Assembly (NCBI RefSeq): GCF_036867195.1
Contig: NZ_JBAJII010000001.1
Coordinates: 1 to 64,000 of the forward strand
Direction of reading: 5' to 3'
DNA length: 64,000 nt
From: Arthrobacter sp. Soc17.1.1.1
GTDB taxonomy: Bacteria; Actinomycetota; Actinomycetes; Actinomycetales; Micrococcaceae
Shown piece after piece: positions 53,647 to 60,804 of this stretch. The notes under the pieces are model-generated. The model was given only the letters and a program-made list of their open reading frames with translations, was not told where the DNA came from and made no database searches. The translations under genes and the position numbers were made by a program. Each line of letters begins with the position of its first letter. The stretch's first letter is position 1.

Positions 53647-53739
53647 CCCCGTGACGGCCCGGCGGGGGACCGGCCGCCGTCGTGTAGCGTGCAACAGACC
53701 CCACCTGACCACCTGCTCATCGCCCGCCGGAGGATAACG

Positions 53740-55104
53740 ATGTCCGCTCCACTGCTCTCGATCATCATCCTCGCGGCGATGTTCCTGATCGCCACGCTCC
53801 TGCCCATCAACATGGGAGCCCTCGCCTTCGTGGGGGCCTTCCTGCTCGGCGCCGTCGTCCTCGGGATGGACACCGACGACATCATCGCCGAATTCCCCGG
53901 CGGGCTGTTCCTCACGCTCGTGGGGGTGACCTACCTGTTCGCCATCGCGCAGAACAACGGCACCATCGACCTCCTCGTGCAGGGCGCGGTGAAGCTCGTC
54001 CGCAACCGCGTGGCCCTCATCCCGTGGGTCATGTTCCTCATCACGGCCGTCATCACCGCCGTCGGTGCGCTCGGCCCGGCAGCGGTGGCGATCATGGCGC
54101 CCGTGGCGCTCGGCTTCGCGGCCCGCCACAGGATCTCCCCGCTGCTCATGGGCATGATGGTGGTCCACGGCGCGCAGGCCGGCGGCTTCTCGCCCATCGC
54201 CGTGTACGGCGTGATCGTCAACGACATCGTCGGCGAATCGGGCTTCGAGTCGAGCCCGCTGGCCGTCTTCCTCGCCAGCTTCATCTTCAACCTGCTGATC
54301 GCCGTCGTCCTGTTCGTCGTCCTCGGCGGACGCAAGCTCATGTCCTCCCGGATGGGCGAGTTCATCGAGGAGGCCGCCGAGGCCCGCCTCAACGCGAGCC
54401 CCGGCATGCGCCGCGCGGACGTCGCCTACAAGGGCACCGGCAGCGGGACGTACGGACCCCGCGACCCCGCGGGCGACGGCGTGGTGGCCACGAAATCACG
54501 CGAGGACCGCATCTCGCAGCCCGCCACCATCCTCGGCCTGATCGCGCTCGCCGTGATCGCCCTCGGGTTCAAGGTCGACGTCGGATTCGTCGCCATCACG
54601 ATCGCCGTGATCCTCGCGCTCATCTCCCCGAAGGCCCAGAGCGGTGCGGTCAACAAGATCGCCTGGTCCACCGTCCTGCTCATCTGCGGCATGCTGACCT
54701 TCGTCGGGGTGCTGCAGGCCGCGGGAACCATCGAGTACGTGTCCGACGGCGTCGCGAACCTCGGCATGCCGCTGCTCGCCGCGCTGCTCATCTGCTACAT
54801 CGGCGCCGTCGTCTCGGCCTTCGCCTCCTCGACCGCCATCCTCGCCGCCCTCATCCCGCTGGCCATCCCGTTCCTCGAGACCGGGGCCGTGGGAGCCGTC
54901 GGCGTGGTGTGCGCCCTGGCGGTGTCCGCGACGATCGTGGACGTCTCGCCGTTCTCCACGAACGGCGCCCTCGTGCTCGCCAACGCACCCGAGGGTACCG
55001 ACAAGGACCGCTTCTACCGGCAGATCCTCGGGTACGGAGCCATCGTCGTCGTGGCTGGGCCGCTCATCGCATGGCTCGTCCTCGTGGTGCCCGGCTGGCT
55101 CTGA
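53740..55104 (+). CDS. MatC-type dicarboxylate (malonate) carrier
   Basis: Membrane carrier of 454 residues with about 12 helices. The N-terminal half is the recognisable MatC_N pattern: INMGALAFVGAFLLGAVVLG, DDIIAEFPGGLFLTLVGVTY, ALIPWVMFLITAVITAVGA, MGMMVVHGAQAGGFSPIAVY. MatC from Rhizobium trifolii transports malonate. GGAGG at 53729-53733, six bases before the ATG, fixes the start; a frame extending 51 bases earlier is not supported. It is followed 65 bases later by a CoA-transferase and then a fused carboxyltransferase. Substrate is inferred; other C3-C4 dicarboxylates are possible. Confidence 0.85.
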   Translation: MSAPLLSIIILAAMFLIATLLPINMGALAFVGAFLLGAVVLGMDTDDIIAEFPGGLFLTLVGVTYLFAIAQNNGTIDLLVQGAVKLVRNRVALIPWVMFLITAVITAVGALGPAAVAIMAPVALGFAARHRISPLLMGMMVVHGAQAGGFSPIAVYGVIVNDIVGESGFESSPLAVFLASFIFNLLIAVVLFVVLGGRKLMSSRMGEFIEEAAEARLNASPGMRRADVAYKGTGSGTYGPRDPAGDGVVATKSREDRISQPATILGLIALAVIALGFKVDVGFVAITIAVILALISPKAQSGAVNKIAWSTVLLICGMLTFVGVLQAAGTIEYVSDGVANLGMPLLAALLICYIGAVVSAFASSTAILAALIPLAIPFLETGAVGAVGVVCALAVSATIVDVSPFSTNGALVLANAPEGTDKDRFYRQILGYGAIVVVAGPLIAWLVLVVPGWL

Positions 55105-55169
55105 GCCCCCGGCCCCACCCCGCAAGCCCCCCCCGCAAGCACCCCCACAGCACCCCCTTCGGAGGAAGC

Positions 55170-56387
55170 ATGAGCGCCGAACCGACCGCCACCACCACGA
55201 CCCACCGCGGGGGGCCCCTGGCCGGCCGCCTCGTCGTCGACCTCAGCCGGGCGCTCGCCGGGCCGCACGCCGGCATGATGCTCGGGGACCTGGGCGCGCG
55301 GGTGATCAAGGTCGAGACGCCGGGCACGGGCGACGACACGCGCGGGTGGGGGCCGCCGTTCGTTGGTCCCGAGGACGACCGCCAGGCCACCTACTTCCTG
55401 TCCTGCAACAGGAACAAGGAATCCATCGCCCTCGACCTCAAGAGCGACGACGGCAGGAGCGTCCTCACGGAACTGCTGCGCCGCGCGGACGTGGTCGTCG
55501 AGAACTTCCGCCCCGGCGTCCTCGACCGCCTCGGTTTCTCCACCGACGCCATGCTCGAGCTCAACCCGGGCCTCGTCATCCTCTCCATCACCGGGTTCGG
55601 CCACGACGGCCCCGAGGCGACGCGCAGCGGGTACGACCAGATCGTGCAGGGCGAGGCCGGGCTGATGTCCGTCACGGGGCCGGACCCGGACAATCCGCAG
55701 CGCGTCGGGGTGCCCATCGCCGACCTGCTGTCCGGCATGTACGGGGCCTACGGCGCCGTCGCCGCACTGCTGGAGCGGGAACGCACCGGCAGGGGACAGG
55801 TGGTCCGCACCTCCCTGCTGGCCGCGATCATCGGCGTCCACGCGTTCCAGGGCACCCGCACCACCGTCGCGGGGGAGGTGCCGCGCGCGCAGGGCAACCA
55901 CCACCCGTCGATCGCACCCTACGGGCTGTTCAACTGCCGCGGCGGCAAGGTACAGATCAGCGTGGGCAGCGAGCGGCTGTGGTCCACGTTCTCCAGCACG
56001 TTCGGCATCGCTGCCCGCCCCGAGTTCGCGTCCAACGCCGACCGCGTGCGGAACCGGGACCAGCTGATCGGCGTCGTCGAGGACGCGTTCTCGGCCTACG
56101 AGGCGGAACCGCTGCTCGCGAAGCTCAATGAGGCGGGCATCCCCGCGGGCAAGGTACGGACCCTCGACGAGGTCTACGCCTGGGACCAGGTGCACTCGCA
56201 GGGCCTCCTCCTCACCGTGCAGCACCCGGTCCTCGGTGACATCGCCCTGCCCGGGCCGCCGCTGCGGTTCTTCGACGGCGCCGCCGAGACCACTCCGGCC
56301 GGCCATACCGCGCCGCCCCTGCTCGACGGCGACGGCGACGCCATCCGCGCCTGGCTCGCCTCCACCTCCGGCGGACCCAGGGCGTGA
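55170..56387 (+). CDS. CaiB/BaiF-type (class III) CoA-transferase
   Basis: Moves CoA between acids, here likely onto a dicarboxylate. The 405 residues carry the class III pattern: LVVDLSRALAGPHAGMMLGD, ARVIKVETPGTGDDTRGW, FLSCNRNKESIALDLKS, VENFRPGVLDRLG, GFGHDGPEATRSGYD and the catalytic Asp185 in VPIADLLSGMYGAYG. GGAGG four bases upstream supports ATG 55170. The 3' end overlaps the next start as GTGA. In context it may activate malonate or a related dicarboxylate brought in by the carrier. Confidence 0.88.
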   Translation: MSAEPTATTTTHRGGPLAGRLVVDLSRALAGPHAGMMLGDLGARVIKVETPGTGDDTRGWGPPFVGPEDDRQATYFLSCNRNKESIALDLKSDDGRSVLTELLRRADVVVENFRPGVLDRLGFSTDAMLELNPGLVILSITGFGHDGPEATRSGYDQIVQGEAGLMSVTGPDPDNPQRVGVPIADLLSGMYGAYGAVAALLERERTGRGQVVRTSLLAAIIGVHAFQGTRTTVAGEVPRAQGNHHPSIAPYGLFNCRGGKVQISVGSERLWSTFSSTFGIAARPEFASNADRVRNRDQLIGVVEDAFSAYEAEPLLAKLNEAGIPAGKVRTLDEVYAWDQVHSQGLLLTVQHPVLGDIALPGPPLRFFDGAAETTPAGHTAPPLLDGDGDAIRAWLASTSGGPRA

Positions 56388-57880
56388 GTGCTCCGGCACG
56401 GCACCTCACCGCGCGCGAGCTCATCGGCGCCGTGCTCGACGCCGGGTCCTTCACCTCGTGGGACGGCCCCGCCCCGACCTCCGCCGGCCCCGCCTACGGG
56501 GAGGAGCTGCGACGGGCCCGGGAGAAGAGCGGTGAGGACGAGTCGGTATTGACCGGGGAAGGCCTCATCCACGGCCGCCGGGTGGCCGTCATCGTCTCGG
56601 AGTTCACCTTCCTGGCGGGCTCGATCGGTGCCGCCGCGGCGCACCGCATCACGGCGGCCGTCCGCCGCGCGACCGCGGAGCGGCTACCCCTGCTCGCTGG
56701 CCCGGCGTCGGGCGGCACACGCATGCAGGAGGGGACACCCGCGTTCCTGTCGATGGTGGAGATCACCGGGGCGGTCCGCGCGCACCGGCAGGCCGGGCTC
56801 CCGTACCTCGTGTACCTCCGGCACCCGACGACGGGGGGCGTCATGGCGTCCTGGGGCTCGCTCGGCCACGTCACCGTCGCCGAGCCGGGGGCACTCCTCG
56901 GCTTCCTCGGGCCGCGCGTGTACGAGGCGCTCCACGGGGAGCCCTTCCCGGCGGGCGTGCAGACCGCGGAGAACCTCTTCGACCAGGGCCTCATCGACGC
57001 CGTCGTGCCGCCCGGGCAACTGGCCGGGATCGTGGACACGGCGCTCGCCGTCCTGCTCGCCGACCCGCCGGAGCTTCCCGAGGAACCCTCGACGTCGTCC
57101 GTGCAGCCCGGCACCGCGGACGCCTGGACCTCCATCCTGATCTCGCGCAACCGCCGCCGACCTGACCTCCGCCGCCTCCTCGCCTACGGTGCCCGGGACG
57201 TCCTGCCCCTCAACGGCACGGGCCAGGGGGAGAAGGACCCCGGACTGCTGCTCGCGCTCGCCCGCTTCGGGAGCCGGCCCTGCATCGTCCTCGGGCACCA
57301 GCGGCCCCGGAAGCCCGGCGACCCCGGGATGGGCCCGGCGTCGCTGCGCGAGGCACGCCGCGGGATGAAGCTCGCCGAAGAGCTCGGGCTGCCGCTGCTG
57401 ACCGTCATCGACACCGCAGGCGCGGATCTCTCCAAAGCGGCGGAGGAGGGCGGGCTCGCCGGGGAGATCGCCCGGTCCCTGCACGATCTCATCGGTCTGG
57501 CCTCACCGTCGGTGTCCGTGCTGCTCGGGCAGGGCGCCGGCGGAGGGGCGCTCGCGCTGCTGCCGGCGGACAGCACCATCGCCGCGGAGCACGCCTGGCT
57601 CTCGCCCCTGCCGCCCGAGGGTGCGAGCGCCATCGTGCACCGCACCGTGGACCGGGCGCCGGAGATGGCGGAGGCGCAGGGCGTGAAGGTCGCGGCGCTC
57701 ATGGCGCGCGGCGTCGTCGACCACGTGGTGGACGAGCGCCCCGATGCCGCCGAGGAGGGACGGGCGTTCTGCGAGCGGATGGCGACGGCGATCGAGTACG
57801 AGCTGGCGCGGGTCGGGGCCCTGCCGGCCGCCGACCGCCTCGAGCGGCGTGCGGGGAAGTACCGGGCAGGGGCGGGCTGA
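56384..57880 (+). CDS. Fused acyl-CoA carboxyltransferase (AccD + AccA-like)
   Basis: Carboxyltransferase of 498 residues with both halves of the fold in one chain: the AccD/beta-like part about 10-225 (oxyanion loop SGGTRMQEGTP; HPTTGGVMASWG) and the AccA/alpha-like part about 255-495 (VIDTAGADLSKAAEEGG; LGQGAGGGALALLPAD). It lacks the N-terminal Cys4 zinc finger of AccD. No biotin carboxylase or biotin carrier gene is adjacent. Two readings are possible: a carboxyltransferase subunit that uses a biotin protein encoded elsewhere, or a biotin-independent decarboxylase like the MdcD/MdcE pair of malonate decarboxylase. The start overlaps the CoA-transferase stop. Confidence 0.82.
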   Translation: MSAPARHLTARELIGAVLDAGSFTSWDGPAPTSAGPAYGEELRRAREKSGEDESVLTGEGLIHGRRVAVIVSEFTFLAGSIGAAAAHRITAAVRRATAERLPLLAGPASGGTRMQEGTPAFLSMVEITGAVRAHRQAGLPYLVYLRHPTTGGVMASWGSLGHVTVAEPGALLGFLGPRVYEALHGEPFPAGVQTAENLFDQGLIDAVVPPGQLAGIVDTALAVLLADPPELPEEPSTSSVQPGTADAWTSILISRNRRRPDLRRLLAYGARDVLPLNGTGQGEKDPGLLLALARFGSRPCIVLGHQRPRKPGDPGMGPASLREARRGMKLAEELGLPLLTVIDTAGADLSKAAEEGGLAGEIARSLHDLIGLASPSVSVLLGQGAGGGALALLPADSTIAAEHAWLSPLPPEGASAIVHRTVDRAPEMAEAQGVKVAALMARGVVDHVVDERPDAAEEGRAFCERMATAIEYELARVGALPAADRLERRAGKYRAGAG

Positions 57881-60015: not shown

Positions 60016-60804
60016 TCAGTTGAGCGGGAGCGTGCCCTCGGGCAGGGCGCCGCCGGCGAGCAGCTCCCGTGCGGAGTCCGCCAGGGCGGTGAGCGCGACG
60101 CGCTGCGTCCACGGCCCGTAGGAGATGCGGGCCACGCCGAGCTCCTGCAGGCGCGACGGCGCGAGGCTGCCCGGGACGTTGATGACGCTCAGGCGCTGCG
60201 GGCCGAAGGCCTCCACGAGGGCGGTCACGGCGCGCTCGTCGAGCAGGCCGGGGACGAAGACGTTCGTGGCGCCGAGGTCGAGGTACGCCTTGCCACGCTC
60301 CACGGCGTCGGCCAGGACGTCCGCCGGATCGCGGTCTCCAGCCTTCACGAAGGCATCCGTCCGCGCGTTCAGCACGAAGTCGACACCCTCCGACGTCCCG
60401 GCCTTCAGGACCGCCTCCATCTGCGTGACGGCGTCTGCCAGCGGCCGCATCTGGTCCTCGATGTTCGCGCCGACGATCCCGACGCCGATCGCGCGGCGGA
60501 CCGTGTCCCCGGGGTCGCCGTAGCCGGCTTCGAGGTCGGCGGAGACCGGCAGGTCCGTCGCGGCGGCGATCCGCCCGACGGCGGTGATCATCTCCTCGAG
60601 CGGGATGTTCTCGCCGTCCTCGTAGCCGAGCGACGCGGCGATGGAGTGGCTCGCCGTGGCGAGCGCCTTCGTGCCCGGGATGCCGGCGATCGTCTTCGCA
60701 CTGATGACGTCCCAGACGTTGACGACCTGGAGGATCTCCGGGGCGGAGTGCAGCCGGGCGAGCGTGGTGGCCTTCGCCGCGGTATCGGTGCGTATTTCAG
60801 TCAT
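60016..60804 (-). CDS. Isocitrate lyase/PEP mutase-family protein
   Basis: 262-residue TIM-barrel enzyme of the ICL/PEPM superfamily (C-C or P-C bond lyases and mutases). Family motifs are VVNVWDVISAKTIAG, the Asp/Glu block SADLEAGYGDP, IGVGIVGANIEDQ and VLNARTDAF. The catalytic KKCGH loop Cys of isocitrate lyase itself is not present, so it is not isocitrate lyase; PEP phosphonomutase-like or oxaloacetate/2,3-dimethylmalate-lyase-like function is possible. It overlaps the esterase gene by eight bases. Last of a three-gene leftward operon. Confidence 0.84.
   Translation of the reverse strand: MTEIRTDTAAKATTLARLHSAPEILQVVNVWDVISAKTIAGIPGTKALATASHSIAASLGYEDGENIPLEEMITAVGRIAAATDLPVSADLEAGYGDPGDTVRRAIGVGIVGANIEDQMRPLADAVTQMEAVLKAGTSEGVDFVLNARTDAFVKAGDRDPADVLADAVERGKAYLDLGATNVFVPGLLDERAVTALVEAFGPQRLSVINVPGSLAPSRLQELGVARISYGPWTQRVALTALADSARELLAGGALPEGTLPLN

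What the first reader, a model, noticed from the sequence alone, without database searches (positions are those of the whole stretch)
53740..57880. Possible malonate or dicarboxylate route: MatC carrier, CoA-transferase and fused carboxyltransferase
A MatC-type carrier, a class III CoA-transferase and an AccD-AccA fusion lie in one direction; the last two genes overlap. No biotin carboxylase, biotin carrier, MatA/MatB or Mdc acyl-carrier gene is adjacent. The fused protein lacks the AccD zinc finger. Malonate decarboxylase subunits MdcD and MdcE use this same fold without biotin. I infer import of malonate, CoA transfer to it, then biotin-free decarboxylation of malonyl-CoA. That combination would be a variant of the known Mat and Mdc pathways.
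Basis: partly seen in the sequence, partly recalled or inferred. Interest (0 to 1): 0.74.

Follow-up and report, generated by a model that had tools for sequence, protein, structure and literature searches.

The report
Malonate-use operon with repurposed carboxyltransferase
Soil bacteria of the Arthrobacter group carry a small operon that probably imports malonate, attaches it to coenzyme A and removes CO2 with an enzyme derived from the fatty-acid-making carboxyltransferase, a combination we did not find described; a mycobacterial relative of that enzyme has had no known role.

Summary
The three genes are real: MatC carrier 53740-55104, class III CoA-transferase 55170-56387, and a 498-aa AccD-AccA-type fusion 56384-57880 without zinc finger, overlapping by 4 bases. 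Searches found no biotin, MatA, MatB or MdcA gene in the window. Of 75 related loci with enough upstream sequence, 67 keep regulator-MatC-CoA-transferase-fusion. This genome has lost the regulator.

Context points to malonate. Our MatC is 53-57% identical to carriers beside MatA-MatB, MatA or Mdc genes in five of five proteobacterial plasmids fetched. In a second genus, 27 of 30 fetched MatB loci are followed by a related fusion; that MatB matches a solved malonyl-CoA ligase.

The fusion is not MdcDE. It lies outside the ACC clade, and its biotin-side half has diverged more than its CoA side (ratio 0.74), as expected if biotin is no longer used; this is indirect and the intervals just touch. 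Mycobacterial AccD3, which found no partner in published pull-downs, probably belongs to the same clade.

Best reading: malonate import, CoA transfer, decarboxylation of malonyl-CoA; biotin independence likely but unproven. New variant of a known kind.

The parts
53740..55104 (+). MatC-type dicarboxylate carrier, 454 aa
   Evidence: Pfam PF07158 and PF03600; 53-57% identical to carriers in Rhizobium, Bosea, Paracoccus and Variovorax malonate gene clusters
55170..56387 (+). class III CoA-transferase (CaiB/BaiF family), 405 aa
   Evidence: PF02515 379 bits; nearest solved relatives a CaiB/BaiF protein (4ed9), succinate-hydroxymethylglutarate CoA-transferase (9br7), formyl-CoA transferase (10uh) and YfdE (4hl6)
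55722..55724 (+). codon of Asp185, candidate catalytic Asp of class III CoA-transferases
   Evidence: aligned with the Asp of 4ed9 and 9br7; catalytic role recalled from the family
56384..57880 (+). fused AccD-AccA-type carboxyltransferase without zinc finger, 498 aa, GTG start overlapping the CoA-transferase stop by 4 bases
   Evidence: PF01039 and PF03255; tree
56708..56731 (+). beta-half motif SGGTRMQE (acyl-CoA side), retained
   Evidence: conserved across groups
57410..57433 (+). alpha-half motif DTAGADLS (ACC rows: DT-GAY-G)
57527..57550 (+). alpha-half motif GQGAGGGA (ACC: GEGGSGGA); Gly for Ser in 110 of 110 clade rows, Gln for Glu in 104 of 110
57599..57622 (+). alpha-half motif LSPLPPEG (ACC: YSV-SPEG)
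53647..53739 (.). 93-base gap where seven close relatives have 0.9-1.5 kb with a divergent GntR/FCD regulator; regulator absent here

Best explanation
The operon is a malonate-degrading unit. MatC imports malonate. The class III CoA-transferase moves CoA from acetyl-CoA (or succinyl-CoA) to malonate, giving malonyl-CoA without ATP. The AccD-AccA-type fusion then removes CO2 from malonyl-CoA, giving acetyl-CoA, probably without biotin. With acetyl-CoA as donor the cycle needs only catalytic acetyl-CoA and yields acetate and CO2, the same logic as Mdc but on CoA instead of a carrier protein. Shown: genes, conservation, contexts, tree, diverged alpha half. Inferred: substrate, CoA donor, direction, biotin independence.
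For: Set conserved in 67 of 75 loci with room. Our MatC is 53-57% identical to carriers beside MatA-MatB, MatA or Mdc genes. In a second genus, MatB is followed by a related fusion in 27 of 30 loci fetched; G246 and G128 of that genus show regulator-MatC-MatB-fusion with a regulator about 50% identical to the Arthrobacter-group one. G171 of the same genus has MCD beside MatB instead. The MatB of G246 matches malonyl-CoA ligase 3nyq at 880 bits. The fusion lies outside the ACC clade. No biotin carboxylase or carrier match in the 80 related loci (E 1e-8) or in the 24 further loci with fusions at 44-76% identity (E 1e-6). Alpha half diverged more than beta half (ratio 0.74, bootstrap 0.61-0.91, against 1.00, 0.89-1.11, within ACC). 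Published pull-downs: AccD3 interacted with no partner used (PMC4347857 passages). MdcDE, of the same fold, decarboxylates malonyl-CoA without biotin (PMC5534430 sections).
Against: The alpha half still scores as AccA (149-153 bits) and keeps a Gly-Gly-Ala core in most rows. MdcE's Gln100 and Ser142 are not conserved. The MatB-linked lineage keeps the AccA motifs and shows no asymmetry (1.04, 0.84-1.29), so a malonate context does not by itself imply loss of biotin; bootstrap intervals of our clade overlap those of that lineage and of other fusions (0.80-1.11) and just touch that of ACC. PrpF-linked MatCs fall in the same 100-support MatC clade as ours, and the MatB-linked MatCs form another, so MatC alone does not fix the substrate. 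One genome with the operon (G074) also has an MdcD over cut-off. The fusion occurs without a CoA-transferase nearby in L027, L055, L061, L086 and in 10 of 12 unnamed-genome loci at 56-65% identity (L123, L125, L127-L134; L125 is a short contig with a MatC piece and a MatB).
Confidence: 0.5

Rival explanations
1. Same malonate pathway, but the fusion is still a biotin-dependent carboxyltransferase: it moves the carboxyl group of malonyl-CoA to a biotin carrier encoded elsewhere, from which CO2 is released, or ATP is regained by running biotin carboxylase backwards.
For: AccA-like alpha half; four biotin carboxylases in this genome; MatB-linked relatives keep the AccA motifs.
Against: No biotin carboxylase or carrier match beside the close members examined. 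In this genome one BC sits with a carrier in a 5-oxoprolinase-like cluster (assigned by eye), one is pyruvate-carboxylase-sized, and two lie about 1 and 8 kb from other CT genes. AccD3 interacted with no partner used in published pull-downs. Alpha half diverged.
Confidence: 0.25
2. The operon degrades another dicarboxylate that forms a 1,3-carboxy-acyl-CoA, such as methylmalonate, or a mixture; the fusion decarboxylates that thioester.
For: MatC relatives below about 47% identity have other neighbours (PrpF, tartrate-type, aromatic); two PrpF-linked ones fall inside our MatC clade. The carrier in line with CoA-transferase and fusion is TctABC in L135, and a GntP-type permease lies near L124's pair. 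Two remote fusions lie near genes that look like a B12-binding mutase subunit or succinyl-CoA synthetase (L170, L179, assigned by eye).
Against: The same type of regulator (about 50% identical) and a MatC recur with MatB, a malonyl-CoA ligase by match to 3nyq.
Confidence: 0.15
3. The fusion works in the carboxylating direction to supply malonyl-CoA or another carboxy-acyl-CoA for lipid synthesis, and the neighbours are incidental.
For: Sources name such proteins acetyl-CoA carboxyl transferase.
Against: A carrier, a CoA-transferase and a regulator are conserved with it. The genome has two other CT genes. AccD3 of M. smegmatis is not essential for fatty and mycolic acid synthesis (PMC5311964 passages).
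Confidence: 0.07

Closest known systems
Rhizobial Mat pathway (MatA malonyl-CoA decarboxylase, MatB malonyl-CoA synthetase, MatC carrier, GntR regulator)
   Same: Divergent GntR-type regulator in relatives; homologous MatC; malonyl-CoA as presumed intermediate
   Different: MatB replaced by a class III CoA-transferase and MatA by an AccDA-type fusion; the regulator is only 27-32% identical to the proteobacterial ones
Biotin-independent malonate decarboxylase Mdc (MdcA, MdcC, MdcD-MdcE)
   Same: Same crotonase-type alpha/beta carboxyltransferase architecture; exchange-then-decarboxylate logic; one Variovorax Mdc operon uses a homologous MatC
   Different: No MdcA match in the window; CoA-transferase of another class; MdcE contact residues absent; does not group with Mdc in the tree
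MatC-MatB-fusion operon of a Streptomyces-like genus (counterpart in S. coelicolor around SCO2443-2445 is my inference)
   Same: Related regulator, MatC and a zinc-finger-less AccDA-type fusion
   Different: Uses the ATP-dependent ligase MatB; its fusion is a separate lineage and keeps AccA motifs
Mycobacterial AccD3
   Same: Probable same clade: the AccD3-like gene of G074 is 58-60% identical to ours; AccD3 interacted with no partner in published pull-downs
   Different: Stands next to an enoyl-CoA hydratase gene; orthology to M. tuberculosis AccD3 rests on recalled gene order, not on its sequence

Membership tests
Mdc malonate decarboxylase | MdcD and MdcE family scores over curated cut-offs | tested here: not met
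   51-52 and 23 bits against cut-offs of 228-278 and 237
Mdc malonate decarboxylase | MdcE malonyl-contact residues Gln100 and Ser142 | tested here: not met
   Ala and Gly at the aligned positions; residue roles from PMC5534430; mapped by hand through the L142 homolog, whose Gln-Ser spacing is also 42
Mdc malonate decarboxylase | MdcA and acyl-carrier protein genes nearby | tested here: inconclusive
   no match to an MdcA-like piece in the window; no MdcC query was searched
Mat pathway | MatC carrier homolog | tested here: met
   PF07158; 56.5% identity to a MatC beside MatA-MatB
Mat pathway | MatA (MCD) and MatB genes | tested here: not met
   none in the window; no MCD match in the own genome; MatB elsewhere in the genome not searched
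Mat pathway | malonate-dependent growth or malonyl-CoA activity | not testable with these tools
   needs an experiment
Bacterial acetyl-CoA carboxylase carboxyltransferase | AccD zinc finger | tested here: not met
   no CxxC in the fusion; zinc-finger pattern in 4 of 45 loci, the same 4 that have a BC gene near
Bacterial acetyl-CoA carboxylase carboxyltransferase | groups with ACC carboxyltransferases | tested here: not met
   ACC clade support 97, all other fusions together 100 (only 5 ACC rows: four BC-linked and one AccD/AccA pair)
Bacterial acetyl-CoA carboxylase carboxyltransferase | complex with a biotinylated subunit | not testable with these tools
   needs pull-down or assay
Class III CoA-transferase | PF02515 with catalytic Asp | tested here: met
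   379 bits; Asp185 aligned
Class III CoA-transferase | malonate as CoA acceptor | not testable with these tools
   needs an assay

The most novel reading that the evidence does not exclude
A further class of malonyl-CoA decarboxylase exists besides MCD and MdcDE: a fused AccD-AccA descendant that has lost its zinc finger and its use of biotin. It is fed by a class III CoA-transferase, so that malonate is used at no ATP cost, and it includes mycobacterial AccD3, whose function would then be malonyl-CoA removal rather than synthesis.
Probability: 0.42. Interest if true: 0.8.

Novelty: new variant of a known kind. Interest (0 to 1): 0.64.

Why it matters
If true, genes now named acetyl-CoA carboxylase subunits in many Actinomycetota would consume malonyl-CoA instead of making it, which changes metabolic models of Arthrobacter, Streptomyces and mycobacteria. 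It would give the orphan carboxyltransferase AccD3 a testable role and add an ATP-free malonate route as an engineering part. It also offers a case for studying how a biotin-dependent carboxyltransferase can become a biotin-free decarboxylase.

Tried and rejected
Membership in Mdc was rejected on scores, residues and tree. The loop DTAGADLS alone was rejected as a sign of biotin loss because the ACC alpha chain 9m70_B carries a similar loop. MatC phylogeny was tried as a substrate test; several deep nodes have support 19-55 and PrpF-linked carriers fall inside our clade, so it does not decide. The PCCB rows of the tree were wrong reading frames and were dropped; the tree was rebuilt without them. 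The half-by-half comparison was first made on the alignment that still held those rows (ratio 0.73) and was redone without them (ratio 0.74). In one search the CoA-transferase query was out of frame; counts come. L158, L173 and L176 were left out of the trees (frameshift or truncation). The 296-genome surveys are an even draw from the phylum, not a census. The L191 and L192 records carry no annotation there, so their neighbours come from my own searches.

Papers: PMC5534430, abstract and sections 4, 6, 12, 13, 14; PMC4347857, PMC5311964, PMC8307300, PMC12303837, PMC5447737, PMC10302056 and PMC4367926, passages only; PMC3920632, one reference-list passage; other papers, search listings only. 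I saw no description of this operon or of AccD3 as a decarboxylase in the listings; some searches listed 20 of 65, 20 of 54 and 8 of 12 papers, and subscription papers and preprints are mostly not in that library.
Full report
WHAT IS THERE. Three genes lie in one direction: a MatC-type carrier at 53740-55104 (454 aa), a class III CoA-transferase at 55170-56387 (405 aa) and a fused AccD-AccA-type carboxyltransferase at 56384-57880 (498 aa, GTG start). The last two overlap by four bases. The fusion has two cysteines and no CxxC pair, so the AccD zinc finger is absent. Protein searches of the window with a biotin carboxylase, a biotin carrier, MCD, two MatB proteins, an MdcA-like piece and the GntR regulator found none of them (regulator hits have E above 1). 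Upstream, 93 bases away, is a phosphoketolase; downstream, on the other strand, is a protein with a RelA/SpoT domain.

CONSERVATION. Five have too little upstream sequence. Of the other 75, 67 have a divergent GntR/FCD regulator, MatC, CoA-transferase and fusion in this order. Among these, MatC survives only as fragments in L077 and L085 and is split in L038. One locus (L020) lacks the regulator, one (L044) lacks MatC, two (L018, L053) have only the CoA-transferase with the fusion, and four (L027, L055, L061, L086) have the fusion alone; L027 keeps a 42-residue piece of the regulator. In the window the regulator is missing: the gap between phosphoketolase and MatC is 93 bases, against 0.9-1.5 kb in seven close relatives. 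The best match to the regulator in the own genome is about 30% identical.

CONTEXT OF THE CARRIER. MatC relatives were found on 115 plasmid records; I read ten annotated regions. Five proteobacterial ones, 53-57% identical to ours, lie beside malonyl-CoA decarboxylase and malonyl-CoA synthase (L154, L155, L237), beside malonyl-CoA decarboxylase (L160) or at the head of an Mdc gene cluster (L238); identities are. A Tsukamurella case (51%) has no malonate gene nearby. A tree of 29 carriers does not separate these groups cleanly: several deep supports are 19-55, two PrpF-linked carriers fall into our 100-support clade, and the MatB-linked carriers form a clade of their own. The carrier alone suggests, but does not prove, malonate.

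THE FUSION BESIDE MALONYL-COA LIGASE. Of the 30 best MatB loci fetched, 27 are followed by a related zinc-finger-less fusion (at least 40% of it within the stretch held), one shows a short piece and two show none within the 1.5 kb held. G246 and G128 of this genus have regulator, MatC, MatB and fusion together. The regulator there is about 50% identical to the Arthrobacter-group one, whereas the proteobacterial regulators are 27-29% identical to it. The MatB of G246 matches the solved malonyl-CoA ligase 3nyq with 880 bits. In the same genus, G171 has MCD beside a MatB that is 59% identical to the rhizobial one, with no MatC or fusion match in the 10.5 kb held. So MCD and the fusion can take the same place beside MatB, and in our operon a CoA-transferase takes the place of MatB.

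HOW OLD THE PAIR IS. Of six unnamed-genome members 44-50% identical to ours, three have the CoA-transferase beside or near the fusion (L135, L136; L138 with the regulator between), and one (L140) shows part of it at the contig end; L137 and L139 do not. In L135 the carrier in line is TctABC, and a GntP-type permease lies near the L124 pair. Of twelve unnamed-genome members at 56-65% identity, ten stand without a CoA-transferase nearby (L123, L125, L127-L134). Across the 45 further loci I chose to fetch, a biotin carboxylase lies near the fusion in four only (L141, L171, L182, L183). These are 33-36% identical to ours and are the only ones with a zinc-finger pattern. These 45 are picked from two surveys and plasmid hits, not a random sample.

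TREE AND ACTIVE SITE. In a tree of 63 sequences rooted on Mdc, the five ACC rows (four BC-linked, one AccD/AccA pair) form one clade (support 97) and all other fusions another (100). Our clade of 28 has support 89, with the 44-50% group 85, and the MatB-linked lineage 100. Against the five ACC rows, our CoA-transferase-linked rows are 41.5% identical in the beta half but 30.7% in the alpha half, a ratio of 0.74 (column bootstrap 0.61-0.91). The AccD3-like rows give 0.75 (0.61-0.91), the 44-50% group 0.79 (0.66-0.95), ACC against itself 1.00 (0.89-1.11), the MatB-linked lineage 1.04 (0.84-1.29) and the remaining fusions 0.94 (0.80-1.11). The intervals overlap with the last two and just touch that of ACC. 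In the alpha half three active-site motifs differ: GEGGSGGA becomes GQGxGGGA (Gln in 104 of 110 rows, Gly for Ser in 110 of 110), YSV-SPEG becomes LSPLPPEG, and DT-GAY-G becomes mostly DTAGAxLS (the 110 rows include genes fetched twice). The 44-50% group shares the Ser-to-Gly change in six of six rows but keeps Glu; the MatB-linked and remaining fusions keep Glu and Ser in 18 of 18 rows. The structure paper on MdcDE argues that MdcE is poorly conserved against AccA because the two recognise different compounds, AccA carboxybiotin and MdcE not (PMC5534430, section 14); our pattern is of that kind but weaker. Against: the alpha half still scores as AccA, MdcE's Gln100 and Ser142 have no counterpart, and the MatB-linked lineage shows no such divergence.

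BIOTIN PARTNERS IN THIS GENOME. Four biotin carboxylases were found. One lies with a biotin carrier and genes that look like PxpA, PxpB and PxpC (by eye). One lies in a 1190-codon frame, the size of pyruvate carboxylase. Two lie about 1 and 8 kb from other carboxyltransferase genes. None is an obvious spare partner, but use in trans is not excluded. No MCD match and no MdcD over cut-off was found in the genome. In the 296-genome survey MCD occurs in 3 and MdcD over cut-off in 4; one of the four (G074) also carries our operon type.

ACCD3. Genome G074, matched to Mycolicibacterium rutilum by an identical protein, has two members: one in a regulator-MatC-CoA-transferase-fusion operon (L126) and one alone next to an enoyl-CoA hydratase gene (L127). 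The second agrees with the recalled gene order at M. tuberculosis accD3; I did not compare the M. tuberculosis sequence. [quoted passage not shown] smegmatis, and that M. smegmatis has a further homolog, MSMEG_2169 (PMC5311964). For S. coelicolor, SCO2445 is listed in print with acetyl-CoA carboxylases (PMC10302056 and PMC4367926), while another paper names sco2443 and sco2445 as the counterparts of a malonate carrier and a malonyl-CoA synthetase and reports that malonate feeding did not significantly raise flavonoid production in S. albus (PMC5447737). That SCO2445 is the MatB-linked fusion is my inference.

VERDICT. My odds: malonate as substrate about 0.75, decarboxylation of malonyl-CoA about 0.65, without biotin about 0.5. 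The pathway is a new variant of known malonate routes; the enzyme may be a new kind of malonyl-CoA decarboxylase, which a simple assay would decide.

Noticed in passing
window 53647-53739: The dedicated GntR/FCD regulator present in 69 of 80 related loci is absent from this locus and no close copy was found in the genome; MatC now starts 93 bases after a phosphoketolase gene.
   Followed up: yes
L014: A contig labelled Vibrio cholerae strain 35D (WNZI01000003.1) carries the Arthrobacter-type gene order at 75-96% protein identity (CoA-transferase excluded); the label is probably wrong.
   Followed up: no
L088 (own genome C1:703000-720000): A stand-alone biotin carboxylase and biotin carrier lie with PxpA/PxpB/PxpC-like genes; why a 5-oxoprolinase-type cluster should need biotin genes is unclear.
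   Followed up: partly
L137 5411-8152: A remote fusion (45% identity) lies directly behind a citrate synthase gene instead of a CoA-transferase.
   Followed up: partly
L170, L179: Other zinc-finger-less fusions lie near genes that look like a B12-binding mutase subunit (L170) or succinyl-CoA synthetase (both), hinting at methylmalonyl-CoA.
   Followed up: partly
L177 5202-7432: A GntR regulator of the same type overlaps the start of a fusion gene, with a class III CoA-transferase about 3 kb away on the other strand.
   Followed up: partly
L233 (own genome C1:1896743-1898110): A second MatC-type carrier (34-36% identity) near genes that look like sugar-acid metabolism.
   Followed up: partly
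window 60016-60804: A PEP mutase/isocitrate lyase family protein, not matching any named NCBIfam model over cut-off.
   Followed up: no
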